Shown here piece after piece: positions 1 through 4,790 of a stretch of DNA of 64,000 bases (position 1 is the first letter of the stretch; every line of letters begins with the position of its first letter). Where the stretch lies: the NCBI RefSeq assembly GCF_000190315.1, contig NC_015151.1:992001-1056000 (forward strand), written 5' to 3'. The notes under the pieces were generated by a model. It had not been told where the DNA came from and searched no databases. It saw only the letters and a list, made by a program, of their open reading frames with translations. Source of the stretch: Vulcanisaeta moutnovskia 768-28. Lineage in GTDB: Archaea > Thermoproteota > Thermoprotei > Thermoproteales > Thermocladiaceae. Both the position numbers and the translations under genes were made by a program.

Positions 1-309
1 GAGGCCATCAACCCCAGTCTTCAAAACCGGCATCCTACTCAACGCCTCAACCCTCTCCCTAGCCGAGACAGCCATTGGCGATTCAGCGAGCAACTCCCTA
101 GCCGTGTTGATCAACCTCCTAGGCAAATCAGTGTCAGGCGAGCCGAGGAGTTCCTGAAGCTCCTCGGCGTTGAATAGTAGGATGTGCCTGAGGGACTTGA
201 CGCCGGCACTAACCAGCCTATCAATCGTCTGCCTACTGAAGCCAAAATTAACAAGCCTGCCGAGCTCGTTTTCCCCAACCTCACTAGATTCAGCTTTCCT
301 CCTTGGCAC
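1..309 (-). CDS. RadA-family recombinase paralog (N-terminal part; cut by window edge)
   Basis: The 103 visible residues start at a GTG (307-309), which directly follows an in-frame TAA at the far side of a palindrome. Residues about 15-75 read as a helix-hairpin-helix region (for example HILLFNAEELQELLG), and the fragment ends in LKTGVDGL, which matches the segment just before the RecA ATPase core in RadA proteins (typically TGSKALDELLGG). RadA paralogs assist strand exchange and recombinational repair. The ATPase motifs lie beyond base 1, so whether this is the main RadA or a paralog cannot be settled; the GTG start and the context with a SWIM protein favour a paralog. Its promoter architecture mirrors that of the regulator gene at 1340. 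Confidence 0.75.
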   Translation of the reverse strand, partial: MPRRKAESSEVGENELGRLVNFGFSRQTIDRLVSAGVKSLRHILLFNAEELQELLGSPDTDLPRRLINTARELLAESPMAVSARERVEALSRMPVLKTGVDGL

Positions 310-325
310 ACCAGTAATTACTGGT
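310..325. promoter_or_regulatory. Perfect 16-bp palindrome, likely operator of the RadA-like gene
   Basis: ACCAGTAATTACTGGT is its own reverse complement and ends at the base before the GTG start of the RadA-like gene. A TATA-like TTAAAAGG on the minus strand lies just upstream (about 329-337), so the palindrome would cover the transcription start. A near copy sits in the same position before the ribbon-helix-helix gene at 1340. Binding by that regulator is inference. Confidence 0.6.
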
Positions 326-332
326 TACCCTT

Positions 333-455
333 TTAAGGTAGGTCAATGCAGACGTCGAATTCCACCTCCCAATCCCCGTAGTCTTTACCGACATTGATGC
401 ACGTCCTACGGCCATTGGGGTCTTCCAATGGCCTCAACCCATCCTTAATACTCAT
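333..455 (-). CDS. Small protein of unknown function (40 aa)
   Basis: An ATG (453-455) follows immediately after the TGA stop (456-458) of the upstream gene, giving a 40-residue acidic product that begins MSIKDGLRPLEDPNGRR and ends DVCIDLP. It contains two cysteines and no membrane segment. The stop-start coupling with the 180-residue gene and the sensible composition argue that it is translated. It lies 23 bases before the RadA-like start, but the palindrome and TATA element between them suggest the RadA-like gene also has its own promoter. No function is recognised. It could be a chance ORF. Confidence 0.4.
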   Translation of the reverse strand: MSIKDGLRPLEDPNGRRTCINVGKDYGDWEVEFDVCIDLP

Positions 456-998
456 TCAAACAACCCTAACGCCCAGCTTGCTTAAGGCATTATTTACGTA
501 CTGACCAGCCAAGCACGGCCTTGGAAACCTCCAGAACGGCTTCCCCCTACCGAGCTCCCTCACCTCAATTATGCCGACTAGCGTTGGCGTTGTTGATATA
601 GCTGCTTGGATATTGAGTATTGTCTCAGCCCTGATCAGTCCTTGATTAACGAGCCTACGGTAAATCCTGATTATGTTTGGTGGCTTATCCAAACGCTCAA
701 TGACTAAGGCGTAGCCCGAGTCAACAAGCGTGGTTAGGGCATTCACGTTCTCTGGCGGCCATATGAAGTTACCATCCCAACAAAAATGCCTCCTAACCCT
801 ACCCCTAATCAAGGTATCATTGAGACTTATTGGTTCCTCCTGGGCGTTGAATGACCTCGGTATTGCCGAGACTATTAGGATCAAGCCCTTGGTAACTAGG
901 GCTATGGAGCCAAGCCCAACAGTCACCGATGTCGGTGACCTAAAACCGTAGACATAGACCTCCCTCCTCCTAATCAAGCCCTCACTCAACGTGAGCAT
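456..998 (-). CDS. Hypothetical protein (180 aa)
   Basis: I do not recognise the family. The product is soluble with mixed alpha/beta composition. A glycine- and valine-rich N-terminal half (VTVGLGSIALVTKGLIL) is followed by RRHFCWDGNF at about 69-78, then a helical stretch and a final conserved-looking CLAGQYVNNALSKLG. A TATA element (ACTTATAAGG on the minus strand, about 1017-1027) sits roughly 25 bases before the ATG, so the mRNA should be leaderless. Its stop abuts the start of the 40-residue ORF, and the RadA-like gene follows, so a role linked to DNA recombination is possible but only by association. Confidence 0.65.
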   Translation of the reverse strand: MLTLSEGLIRRREVYVYGFRSPTSVTVGLGSIALVTKGLILIVSAIPRSFNAQEEPISLNDTLIRGRVRRHFCWDGNFIWPPENVNALTTLVDSGYALVIERLDKPPNIIRIYRRLVNQGLIRAETILNIQAAISTTPTLVGIIEVRELGRGKPFWRFPRPCLAGQYVNNALSKLGVRVV

Positions 999-1016
999 CG
1001 CTAGTTAGCGGTAAAC

Positions 1017-1027
1017 GCCTTATAAGT
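1017..1027 (-). promoter_or_regulatory. TATA element for the 180-residue gene
   Basis: The minus strand reads ACTTATAAGGC about 20-29 bases upstream of the ATG at 998, as expected for a leaderless crenarchaeal promoter. Confidence 0.5.
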
Positions 1028-1101
1028 ATGTGAGCAAGAACCAGCAATCCTAAGGGGTTGCAGAGCAATGTCCAGTTAGCTTCCGGTGAGTAAAGAGTGA
1101 A

Positions 1102-1122
1102 TTTCCTCGTTTCTCGAGGAAA
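1102..1122. repeat. Perfect 8-bp inverted repeat (hairpin) in a gene-free stretch
   Basis: TTTCCTCG at 1102-1109 and CGAGGAAA at 1115-1122 are exact inverted copies separated by TTTCT. No T-run follows on either strand, so it is not an obvious terminator. The gene-free stretch 999-1311 holds this hairpin and the TATA element of the minus-strand gene. The only ORF in it (1136-1318) has no promoter or recognisable composition, and I did not call it. Confidence 0.45.
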
Positions 1123-1311
1123 AGCCTCTTAACCATTGCTTGGGGTCACCCTAGGGAAAACAAACCAAGATTCTATTGTTTTGCTGTTTGATGTTTCACG
1201 CCTTAGCCTCGCTGCTTTCGTGTATACGCGTGGCTACATGTTTGTGTTTTCGGCTGTGCCTTTCATAGCCCTCGCGTTACATGGCTCCTGCCCACGTGGC
1301 TACGCGTCCTC

Positions 1312-1339
1312 CTTTTAAGTCAACACCAGTAATTGCTGG
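1312..1339 (+). promoter_or_regulatory. Promoter plus palindromic operator of the RHH gene
   Basis: CCTTTTAAGT (1311-1320) is a TATA element about 25 bases before the ATG at 1340. The imperfect palindrome CCAGTAATTGCTGG (1326-1339) fills the gap and ends at the base before the ATG. It differs by one base from the perfect palindrome at 310-325 and occupies the same place. The layout suggests repression by blocking transcription start, probably autoregulation by the ribbon-helix-helix product. Confidence 0.6.
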
Positions 1340-1660
1340 ATGAGGTTTAGGGTTGTACGTGTTAGGGAGGACGTGTATGAATTGCTAAGGGCCCTGGCTG
1401 ACTCTAGGGGTGTCTCTGTGGGTGAGGTTATTCGGCAGTTAATCAATGCATACCTCGCCATGAGTGAGGTCAAGGAAATGCTCAGGCAGTGCCTGAGCCG
1501 AGCAAACACGGAGGTGGTTAAGGACTCAATTAGGGAGAAATCCGTTGAATTAGGTAGTGAGTCCTCAATCAGCCTTGAGGACAACCCGTGGGTGCAGATC
1601 ATAAGGGCCAGGGTGGTTAGGAATGAGGGTGGTGAGGGACGTCGAGGAGTTGGCGGTTGA
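1340..1660 (+). CDS. Ribbon-helix-helix transcriptional regulator (106 aa)
   Basis: Residues 2-40 have the RHH layout: a short basic strand (FRVVRVREDV), a helix (YELLRALADS), a GVSVGE turn and a second helix (VIRQLINAYL). RHH proteins bind palindromes as dimers, using the paired strands to read DNA. The remaining 60 residues are helical and acidic, perhaps a partner-binding tail. The start is fixed by the TATA element at about -25, making the message leaderless. The 3' end overlaps the SWIM gene by 38 bases, so the two are co-transcribed. The likely operator is the palindrome touching its own start codon and its twin before the RadA-like gene. Confidence 0.7.
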   Translation: MRFRVVRVREDVYELLRALADSRGVSVGEVIRQLINAYLAMSEVKEMLRQCLSRANTEVVKDSIREKSVELGSESSISLEDNPWVQIIRARVVRNEGGEGRRGVGG

Positions 1661-2201
1661 AAAGCTCAAAGAGAAGTTCCCTGGCAAATCAAGCTCGTGG
1701 ATAAGGAGGGCCTTGAGGCGTTTCGAAAACGGCTCTGTTAGGCAAGTAGCCGAGAATGCGTGGGTCGTGCGTGGTGATCCGAGGCTTGGGGATAGGTACC
1801 CTAACTACGTCGTTAGGCTTAGGGATGGGAGGTACCAATGCTCATGCTTCGAGACGGGCTGGGGCTTGAGGAGGAGAGGCGAGGTCTGCACCCACATAGC
1901 CGCAGTGATACTACACCGAGAGTACTCGAGGCTGATGCAGCCAATATACGCGGCGGTCATAAGCATGGAGTGCGAGGGAGATTATTACATCGAGGTCCTG
2001 GACAAAGGCGTGAAGGCAATAAGGCGAGTAAGGGCGTTGAGCAGTGACCTAACCAAGCCAAGGTACAGGGTCACGTACGTAATAACGAGTAACGAGCCAA
2101 GGACAGTGAGGATAAGGTACGCATGCGGAGACGAGACTGGCGAGACTGAGGTGGCGTTGAGTAAGGTGATGAGGTTCGTAATTGAATTGATGAAGGATTG
2201 A
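1623..2201 (+). CDS. SWIM zinc-finger domain protein (192 aa)
   Basis: The SWIM motif CxC-x13-CxH is present as C73, C75, C89 and H91 inside YQCSCFETGW...GEVCTHIAAVIL. SWIM proteins such as eukaryotic Sws1 act with Rad51/RadA paralogs in homologous recombination, and archaeal genomes carry SWIM proteins of this size. The C-terminal half looks like a beta-rich domain. The ATG at 1623 overlaps the RHH gene by 38 bases; a GTG at 1632 is an alternative. The neighbouring RadA paralog on the opposite strand, under what looks like the same operator, supports a Sws1/RadA-paralog (Shu-like) pairing, though this remains inference. Confidence 0.75.
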   Translation: MRVVRDVEELAVEKLKEKFPGKSSSWIRRALRRFENGSVRQVAENAWVVRGDPRLGDRYPNYVVRLRDGRYQCSCFETGWGLRRRGEVCTHIAAVILHREYSRLMQPIYAAVISMECEGDYYIEVLDKGVKAIRRVRALSSDLTKPRYRVTYVITSNEPRTVRIRYACGDETGETEVALSKVMRFVIELMKD

Positions 2202-2217
2202 CCACTAATACAACTGT

Positions 2218-2958
2218 TTATATTTTCATAAACCTAATGAGAAGCTCAATAAGATACTTTAAAGCAATAGATAATACTTTAGATAATACTTTCTTACATA
2301 CCTTCTTTATTTTTCTCCAAAATTCGTACCAGAACACGTTTAGTTGTTTTAGCGCGATTGCGCAGAGGTAATACTCGAGGGGTTCGTTCATTGCGTTTGG
2401 ATTGCATATTGTGAACGCAACCTCATTAGCGAGCCTTACATCATTTTTTTCCATTAAGTACAGCGTTAGTAGTGCGGTGTTAAATCTATTGACGTAATCC
2501 CTCCTATCGGCCTTGCTTCCCATGAATTGCTTACTGATTATTTCACGGACAAGCCTATTCACATAATCATCATTGCCATAAGCAATCCTCAGAGCCAACA
2601 CAACCCTCTGTACCTGATCCTCACCTGCTATGTCTCTGAACCTCTCGACGAACCTAATCACTTCATCCCTGTATTCATAAAGTAGGTTCTCGGCACTTTG
2701 CGAGTACGTGCTACAGATCCTGAGTAGTATTAATGACCCAATTCTGTAAGTATAGTCAGGGTTTTGCAGATTGATAGATCTAAAATCGAGCTTGTTACAC
2801 AGGATCCTGGAGTACTCCTCATACCTATTTCTATCAAGTTCTTTTAATGCCAGTAGGTACATTGCGTATTCGTATGGATTCTCCTCATCGATTTTTGGAT
2901 TATGGATAAATCCACGCAATTTAAAATCGCAGAATTCTATGATGTCTTTCATTATCAT
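2218..2958 (-). CDS. Argonaute-associated helical protein with cationic amphipathic tail (246 aa)
   Basis: The ATG overlaps the Argonaute stop by four bases (ATGA), so the two are translationally coupled. The protein is almost entirely helical, with repeated Tyr/Leu-rich helices reminiscent of TPR- or HEPN-like bundles, but I recognise no family. Residues 209-246 are striking: a long helix with Lys/Arg at 215, 216, 218, 219, 222, 223, 227, 234, 242 and 245 on a hydrophobic backbone, ending YLIELLIRFMKI. Such tails bind or perforate membranes. Inactive Argonautes usually act through a partner effector, and the Sulfolobus islandicus system uses a membrane-active one, so I infer this is the effector or adaptor. 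No nuclease motif is visible. Confidence 0.7.
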   Translation of the reverse strand: MIMKDIIEFCDFKLRGFIHNPKIDEENPYEYAMYLLALKELDRNRYEEYSRILCNKLDFRSINLQNPDYTYRIGSLILLRICSTYSQSAENLLYEYRDEVIRFVERFRDIAGEDQVQRVVLALRIAYGNDDYVNRLVREIISKQFMGSKADRRDYVNRFNTALLTLYLMEKNDVRLANEVAFTICNPNAMNEPLEYYLCAIALKQLNVFWYEFWRKIKKVCKKVLSKVLSIALKYLIELLIRFMKI

Positions 2959-4790
2959 GTGTTGTCACTGAGCCATGGAGCGAAACGCGCCACCCTCCTT
3001 GAGTAACTTATTGTGGCGGGCTCTACGATGAACCTTGAGGATGCTGGGTAATACATGTGTCGAAGAAGTTCAATAAACCTCAAATGCCTCATCATCACGT
3101 CCCTATCAACATTATCCCCATAGATCCTTATCGTGAGTGGGTGGTACGCCCTTTCATGAGGCCAGTACATAACCTCCACGTGGGACTTACCACGCTTAAT
3201 CATGGTTAATGAATCCATTCTGCCATCACGAACTAGGGTAATATCGTCCCTCTTACGAATGGATAGCAACCTTACGTTAACGTTAAGGTCCTGTAAATAC
3301 TCGTAAAATAAGCCGTACTCATCATCACTGAGGAATTTCGAAATATGTATCACCAACTCATTAACGTTATATAACTCCTTATAATCCTTAAGGACTCCCT
3401 TGATATTTGAGACTATTTCGTGCATGTCGGAAGCCTCAAACTTCCCGCTACGCATTTTTCGTTTTAGAACAATTGCTCGCGTTATTATCCTGGCGGAGTA
3501 TGGGTCTATAAGGGCGATACCGCCCTTCGTATAGCCCTTCCTTAATGGCTTAGAGAGGGCTATGCCGACGAATAAATTGTTCGCTAAAACGTCAATGTTG
3601 CCCCTGAGGACGGGCATGTATGGCGTGCCCTCAACCCTGAAGAGTATTGAGTTAACTATGTTAGCTTTAACCGCATAGCTATCTAGCTTAGAGATTGTTT
3701 CATTGGTTATGAATTGTGATTTGAAATAGAAGTTTTTCTTTAAAGTTAAGGGCTTTATTGACATAAAGATGGGTCCTAACCTATTCTCCTTACTAAGGAC
3801 CAAAAGACATGATCCGCTATTTATGAATCTATCCCTTACCAACTTAATTACGTCTCCAAGAGGTTTGTCGTGAGAAAACTTGTGCTCATCATCGATATTA
3901 AGCTTTATTCCTAAACCATCCTTAATCGTGTCTTCTAGAACTTTAGTTAACTTCTTTGCCTGGCTGGCTAACGCATTCTCGTAAACAAACACTACATCTA
4001 TTTTCTCTTCCTCACCTGGCAGGAAATAGGGACCAAGCTTCAAGATGTCGGTAACATTCTCACCAGTACTATTTCCCCTAAAACGGAAGGTAATAATAGC
4101 CGGTGGCTTATATTCAATTTCTAGGAACTTAAGCTCCCTATTCCTCACCATATCGTCGTTGAGGACTCGAGTAATAATCTTTAAATCGTTAAGGTAGCTT
4201 GGAAATGCCTCCATAAATTCTGCGTGAATTTCATTCATAACCTCTGGTGATAAACGTCTACTTTTCTTCACTCGGTAATTAAGCGCTATTGGTAGGTACT
4301 GATCCTGCTCATCAATGAGTGACCTGATTACATTGACCTTAAGGCACACCTTCACGGGGTTACGAATTAATTTACCATAATAGTTACTTACGCATAGGTA
4401 TTTACCACGACGCATCTCTTCGTAGGAGTATTGGAATCCCTTGCTCGTTAATAACACACTTAATTGGTAATTAAGCATTGCCGACATCATTGACACCAAG
4501 TTATTGGAGGGAATCCCCTTTAGAACCTCCTTAACCTCATGCTCGCCAAGCCTCCTGCCAGGTACGAGGTCGTCGACCTTTGTGCCTTCCTTAACGCCAA
4601 ACACAAAGACATTCCTCCCATACCTATAATGATACATTACACTAGCTTTGATTAACCTCTTCTTCAAATCCTCCGTCGATAAGCCCTCACTAACCTCATA
4701 AACCACAGCATGACCACTATGTACACCCTCAAGAAACGCACGCTTAAGGTCGTCCAACTTCACGAAAATTAAGTTACTATTAAATGGCAT
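2955..4790 (-). CDS. Prokaryotic Argonaute, catalytically inactive PIWI (611 aa)
   Basis: Residues about 120-260 look like a reduced PAZ/linker region ending in LKLGPYF (250-256), typical of the segment before the MID domain. The MID domain (264-398) keeps SIK (K346), SQFIT (Q359) and a basic R385 before GTPYMP, matching much of the 5'-end pocket. The PIWI domain (405-605) has VGIALS where VGIDVS is expected, so the first catalytic Asp is Ala411. VIHIS (480-484) replaces the usual vihRDG, losing a second Asp. The tail PATISYSRRVARFAP matches the PIWI C-terminus. It should bind a guide and target without cleaving. A promoter lies at about 4813-4824. Length is short for a long-type pAgo. This is an established family; the class assignment is my judgement. 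Confidence 0.85.
   Translation of the reverse strand: MPFNSNLIFVKLDDLKRAFLEGVHSGHAVVYEVSEGLSTEDLKKRLIKASVMYHYRYGRNVFVFGVKEGTKVDDLVPGRRLGEHEVKEVLKGIPSNNLVSMMSAMLNYQLSVLLTSKGFQYSYEEMRRGKYLCVSNYYGKLIRNPVKVCLKVNVIRSLIDEQDQYLPIALNYRVKKSRRLSPEVMNEIHAEFMEAFPSYLNDLKIITRVLNDDMVRNRELKFLEIEYKPPAIITFRFRGNSTGENVTDILKLGPYFLPGEEEKIDVVFVYENALASQAKKLTKVLEDTIKDGLGIKLNIDDEHKFSHDKPLGDVIKLVRDRFINSGSCLLVLSKENRLGPIFMSIKPLTLKKNFYFKSQFITNETISKLDSYAVKANIVNSILFRVEGTPYMPVLRGNIDVLANNLFVGIALSKPLRKGYTKGGIALIDPYSARIITRAIVLKRKMRSGKFEASDMHEIVSNIKGVLKDYKELYNVNELVIHISKFLSDDEYGLFYEYLQDLNVNVRLLSIRKRDDITLVRDGRMDSLTMIKRGKSHVEVMYWPHERAYHPLTIRIYGDNVDRDVMMRHLRFIELLRHMYYPASSRFIVEPATISYSRRVARFAPWLSDNT

What the first reader, a model, noticed from the sequence alone, without database searches (positions are those of the whole stretch)
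310..1339. One operator for an RHH regulator, a SWIM protein and a RadA paralog
ACCAGTAATTACTGGT (310-325) and CCAGTAATTGCTGG (1326-1339) each fill the gap between TATA element and start codon, one before the RadA-like gene and one before the RHH-SWIM operon. This predicts an autoregulated recombination regulon. SWIM/RadA-paralog pairs are known in eukaryotic Shu-type complexes, but a dedicated regulator for such a pair is not something I know to be described in archaea.
Basis: partly seen in the sequence, partly recalled or inferred. Interest (0 to 1): 0.72.

Follow-up and report, generated by a model that had tools for sequence, protein, structure and literature searches.

The report
Twin operators in archaeal recombination cluster
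Two near-identical DNA palindromes sit in the same place in two neighbouring promoters of a Vulcanisaeta (heat-loving archaeon) genome, most likely letting one small DNA-binding protein switch off itself, its partner gene and a RadA-like recombination gene; the arrangement is real and unique in this genome, but it is not conserved in the related copies and has not been tested at the bench.

Summary
CCAGTAATTACTGG (311-324, inside a perfect 16-bp palindrome at 310-325) and CCAGTAATTGCTGG (1326-1339) each fill the 21-nt gap between a TATA box and a leaderless start codon, one before a RadA paralog, one before an RHH-SWIM operon. In the whole 2.30-Mb genome only these two places have a TATA box followed by CCAGN6CTGG; the reversed control gives none. 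The genome has one RHH protein of this family. This fits a private operator pair for that protein.

The RHH residues expected to touch DNA also differ there, so a lineage-specific, co-evolving operator remains possible. The genes belong to a conserved, multi-copy, partly decayed cluster with pilus- and DNA-transfer-type ATPases, probably a mobile element. RHH autorepressors on archaeal mobile elements (SvtR) are known; a recombination pair as target is new to me. The Shu analogy rests on the CxC...CxHxxA motif only; a fold search found no Shu2/SWS1 match. RHH binding is inferred, not shown.

The parts
1..309 (-). 5' part of the RadA-paralog gene radP (328 aa; GTG start at 309-307; continues 677 bases left of the window, L006:6323-7309)
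   Evidence: Pfam Rad51 E=1.3e-33; 44% identical to a second chromosomal paralog and 33% to the canonical RadA
310..325 (.). operator-like palindrome 1, ACCAGTAATTACTGGT
330..337 (-). TATA box of radP (CTTAAAAG)
   Evidence: sequence; TATA and spacing conserved at orthologous radP promoters
333..455 (-). small ORF s40 (40 aa) between g180 and radP
   Evidence: conserved in L102 and L103, 66-68% identical
456..998 (-). g180, 180-aa conserved protein of the cluster, no recognised domain
999..1010 (.). different inverted repeat CGCTAGTTAGCG abutting the g180 start codon; borderline by chance (p about 0.05)
1019..1026 (-). TATA box of g180 (CTTATAAG)
   Evidence: sequence
1040..1047 (.). single half-site ACCAGCAA upstream of the g180 TATA box; may be chance
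1312..1319 (+). TATA box of the RHH-SWIM operon (CTTTTAAG)
   Evidence: sequence; conserved in relatives
1326..1339 (.). operator-like imperfect palindrome 2, CCAGTAATTGCTGG
1340..1660 (+). RHH (CopG-type) protein, 106 aa, with a conserved C-terminal EDNPWVQIIR tail
   Evidence: Pfam RHH_1 E=1.9e-7; alignment; AvtR is the only PDB sequence match
1623..2201 (+). SWIM-type protein, 192 aa, start overlaps the RHH gene
   Evidence: PF04434 E=0.024, below cutoff; CSC...CTHIAA motif invariant in 7 of 8 homologs, with HIGA in the chromosomal one

Best explanation
The two palindromes are operators of the RHH protein encoded at 1340-1660. Two RHH dimers would sit on the two 8-bp half sites, covering the stretch between TATA box and transcription start, and so block RNA polymerase or assembly of the initiation complex. 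The result would be negative autoregulation of the RHH-SWIM operon and parallel repression of the RadA paralog, keeping a recombination module of a probable mobile DNA-transfer element quiet until RHH levels fall. Shown here: the sites, their placement, their uniqueness in the genome, the domain calls and the conserved gene cluster. Inferred: that this RHH protein binds, that binding represses, that SWIM and RadA paralog act together, and any role in transfer.
For: Only two promoters in the genome carry TATA plus CCAGN6CTGG, and they are these neighbours. Match between the two gaps 12 score units, none of 1000 shuffles reach it. Identical 21-nt gap and near-identical register. RHH domain with nearest solved relative AvtR, an archaeal viral RHH regulator. 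One RHH of this family in the genome. RHH proteins of archaeal viruses bind imperfect inverted repeats and SvtR represses its own promoter and further sites (PMC5569661). radP and the SWIM gene are also linked in L111 (G024) and L112 (G002, another genus), where they are not next to an intact RHH gene.
Against: No palindrome at orthologous rhh or radP promoters in G014, G016, G018, and no shared replacement motif between rhh and radP promoters there. The rhh-g180 pair of L105 reaches p about 0.04 in about 17 comparisons, which is not significant. No binding or expression data.
Confidence: 0.6

Rival explanations
1. The palindromes are operators, but of another regulator (host- or element-encoded), and the RHH protein has other targets.
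For: Location next to an RHH gene is only guilt by association; orthologous RHH genes lack the site.
Against: No other promoter in the genome carries the site, which is unusual for a host regulator with its own gene elsewhere, and one site abuts the RHH start codon as is typical of autoregulation.
Confidence: 0.22
2. The RHH protein is a partition (centromere-binding) or DNA-transfer accessory factor that also uses these sites, comparable to MobC of RA3 or PrgO-like proteins, with the ParA-like ATPase of the same cluster as partner.
For: Weak sub-cutoff NCBIfam match to PrgO (E=0.0044); ParA-like ATPase in the cluster; [quoted passage not shown]
Against: Only two sites 1 kb apart, each placed exactly in a promoter; the ParA-like gene lies about 10 kb away; no cluster of repeats was seen in the searched 86 kb.
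Confidence: 0.08
3. Chance or neutral leftover, for example copying of a short palindrome, without function.
For: The palindrome is absent from orthologous promoters; exact 14-mers occur elsewhere by chance in coding DNA.
Against: Pairing, register and exclusive promoter placement; the sequences around the two sites are otherwise unrelated, which argues against a duplicated segment.
Confidence: 0.1

Closest known systems
SvtR of virus SIRV1 (RHH autorepressor, described in PMC5569661)
   Same: RHH protein of an archaeal mobile element, predicted to bind inverted repeats and repress its own and another promoter
   Different: SvtR's strongest target is a structural gene with a site about 80 nt from the TATA box; here the site lies between TATA and start and the targets are a SWIM gene and a RadA paralog
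AvtR of virus AFV6 (PDB 4hv0)
   Same: closest solved sequence, E=0.0045; 42% identity over 33 residues in the fold comparison
   Different: AvtR is a tandem double RHH with a different consensus site; the window protein has one RHH plus a conserved NPWVQIIR tail
MobC of conjugative plasmid RA3 (PMC4175270)
   Same: RHH protein of a conjugative element reported to autoregulate its operon
   Different: bacterial, works with a relaxase; no relaxase was identified here
Shu complex (Shu2/SWS1 with Rad51 paralogs)
   Same: SWIM protein with CxC...CxHxxA motif next to a Rad51/RadA paralog
   Different: no fold match to Shu2/SWS1 in PDB; interaction not shown; carried on a probable mobile element
Ted/Ced DNA-import systems of Thermoproteales/Sulfolobales (PMC9905601)
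   Same: cluster with HerA/VirB4-like and ParA-like ATPases, small membrane proteins, and recombination genes nearby
   Different: no sequence match of the pilin-like 137-aa protein to solved pilins; CedD/CedB matches far below cutoff; multi-copy and decaying in relatives, so mobile rather than domesticated

Membership tests
RHH (CopG/MetJ) transcriptional regulators | N-terminal strand-helix-helix domain above the curated cutoff | tested here: met
   PF01402 31.2 bits against cutoff 20.5; helices 10-23 and 27 on in the model, whose strand is not resolved in the monomer
RHH (CopG/MetJ) transcriptional regulators | binding to a short symmetric operator in its own promoter | tested here: inconclusive
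   matching palindrome abuts its start codon and occurs at one further promoter only; not found in orthologs; no binding assay possible
RadA/Rad51 paralogs | RecA-core ATPase related to Rad51 but distinct from the canonical RadA of the same genome | tested here: met
   Rad51 E=1.3e-33; below the RadA equivalog cutoff (152 against 259 bits); canonical RadA encoded elsewhere
Shu2/SWS1 SWIM proteins | CxC...Xn...CxHxxA motif | tested here: met
   CSC...CTHIAA in the window protein and in 7 of 8 aligned homologs in close form; motif definition from PMC6316741
Shu2/SWS1 SWIM proteins | fold similar to Shu2/SWS1 | tested here: not met
   AlphaFold model pLDDT 87, no Shu-like hit in PDB, best hits are unspecific beta-sandwiches
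Shu2/SWS1 SWIM proteins | physical interaction with a Rad51 paralog | not testable with these tools
   only gene linkage is seen
Ted DNA-import system | TedC-type pilin, TedA-type channel, TedB-type ATPase | tested here: inconclusive
   HerA/VirB4-type ATPase present; pilin candidate has no PDB sequence match; membrane-protein homology not testable by profile comparison here

The most novel reading that the evidence does not exclude
A mobile DNA-transfer element of Vulcanisaeta carries its own recombination pair (SWIM protein plus RadA paralog) under a private RHH repressor whose operator specificity changes from copy to copy together with the RHH strand residues, so that each element copy regulates only itself.
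Probability: 0.2. Interest if true: 0.6.

Novelty: new member of a known kind. Interest (0 to 1): 0.4.

Why it matters
If the RHH protein does bind both sites, this would be a two-promoter regulatory circuit, small enough to reconstitute, that controls recombination factors in a crenarchaeal mobile element. Regulation of recombinase paralogs in archaea is little described, as far as I know. It also offers a simple in vitro test (one protein, two short DNA sites) and, through the several element copies in V. distributa, a natural case for studying how repressor and operator change together.

Tried and rejected
(1) Genome-wide enrichment of the bare palindrome: none over the reversed control. 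(2) Conservation at orthologous promoters: absent. The one TATA-plus-palindrome match in another genome (G022, L124) lies inside a coding frame. (3) A shared but different motif in each relative's own rhh, radP and g180 promoters: nothing significant. (4) Homologs of the RadA paralog and the SWIM protein in viral contigs: none. (5) Shu2/SWS1 fold: no match. (6) Literature on archaeal SWIM plus RadA paralogs: nothing on point in the held library. I did not collect the genome in pieces to get round that. (8) An overlapping duplicated segment as source of the two sites: rejected, flanks are unrelated apart from the TATA box.

Full report
What is there. The window is bases 992001-1056000 of a single 2,298,983-base contig. 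The genus is Vulcanisaeta: same-genus relatives include V. distributa JCM 11216 and Vulcanisaeta sp. JCM 14467. From the genome size I believe the species is V. moutnovskia, but no tool output confirms this. Site 1 (310-325) is a perfect 16-bp palindrome and site 2 (1326-1339) is an imperfect one that matches 13 of 14 bases of site 1's core. Each fills the gap between a TATA box and a start codon, and both gaps are 21 nt. Such spacing fits leaderless transcripts, so the palindromes would lie between TATA and transcription start and not in the mRNA (inference).

Is it more than chance? A perfect palindrome with 8-bp arms alone is not remarkable in 64 kb (0.8 expected), and the bare 14-mer is not enriched genome-wide. 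The pairing and placement are what count. A TATA box followed within 4-14 nt by CCAGN6CTGG occurs exactly twice in the genome, at these two neighbouring promoters, and never in the reversed control. Shuffling one gap never reproduced the match. The other copies with 0-1 mismatch that I inspected lie in open frames.

What the genes are. The gene at 1340-1660 encodes an RHH protein (PF01402); its only PDB sequence match is AvtR, a regulator of an archaeal virus. It overlaps a 192-aa protein with a SWIM-type CxC...CxHxxA motif (PF04434 below cutoff; alignment). The gene left of site 1 encodes a 328-aa RadA paralog. The canonical RadA lies elsewhere (826624), as does a second SWIM protein about 5 kb from it. 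The nearest chromosomal paralog is 44% identical.

Surroundings. In G014, G016 (V. distributa) and G018 the same genes recur as a cluster with pilin-like and membrane proteins, radP, a 40-aa and a 180-aa protein, and divergent rhh-swim. Left of the window lie a secretion-type ATPase (PF00437), a HerA/VirB4-type ATPase (PF01935) and a ParA-like ATPase. Several copies, some frameshifted or fragmented, occur in V. distributa and G018. I infer a mobile element with a DNA-transfer-type apparatus. I did not look for an integrase or element ends. radP and SWIM remain linked in G024 and in G002 of another genus, which supports a functional pair independent of the RHH gene.

Conservation of the operator. 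The TATA box is kept about 20 nt before the start codon in most orthologous rhh and radP promoters, but the gap sequence is different and without a palindrome. A genus-wide pattern search finds no further promoter site. Within each relative, rhh, radP and g180 promoters share nothing significant. It is a weak negative, because the available RHH relatives are only 50-65% identical and strand positions 5 and 7, which by alignment to CopG and by the review's rule of alternate strand residues should face the DNA, are V/R in the window and S/R, C/S or S/S in the relatives (PMC5569661). No close ortholog was available to test.

Mechanism. The most economical reading is RHH autorepression with one additional target, as established for SvtR (PMC5569661). 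It is shown that the sites exist, are unique and are placed like repressor sites. It is inferred that the RHH protein binds them, represses, and that the targets cooperate in recombination.

Comparison. As a regulator it is a new member of a known kind, the RHH autorepressors of mobile elements. The target pair is the new part. The Shu label should not be used as a family assignment: the motif is met, the fold search is not, and interaction is untested.

Noticed in passing
window 2955-4790 (-) and 2218-2958 (-): A 611-aa prokaryotic Argonaute (PADLOC pAgo E=1.1e-24) overlaps a 246-aa ORF without any match; the pair lies right next to the SWIM gene but is not part of the conserved cluster in relatives.
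   Followed up: partly
window 999-1010: The g180 promoter has its own, different inverted repeat (CGCTAGTTAGCG) abutting the start codon, with a single ACCAGCAA half-site upstream at 1040-1047.
   Followed up: partly
L006 and L118 (left of the window, about 970000-992300 of the contig): Cluster of pilin-like, membrane and ATPase genes (T2SSE, HerA/VirB4-like, ParA-like, a 994-aa protein with P-loop-like motifs) that looks like a DNA-transfer or pilus element; its ends and integrase were not mapped.
   Followed up: partly
L104, L105, L106, L107, L108 (G016, V. distributa JCM 11216): At least five RHH-SWIM copies in one genome, several frameshifted or split, often at contig ends: a natural series of decaying element copies with divergent RHH strand residues.
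   Followed up: partly
L018 and L059 (G000:C1:826624 and 832387): The canonical radA and a chromosomal SWIM gene lie about 5 kb apart; they are also near each other in G014 and G022.
   Followed up: no
window 1580-1612 (RHH C-terminus): The RHH protein ends in a tail EDNPWVQIIR that is nearly invariant among relatives while the middle varies; possibly an interaction motif.
   Followed up: no
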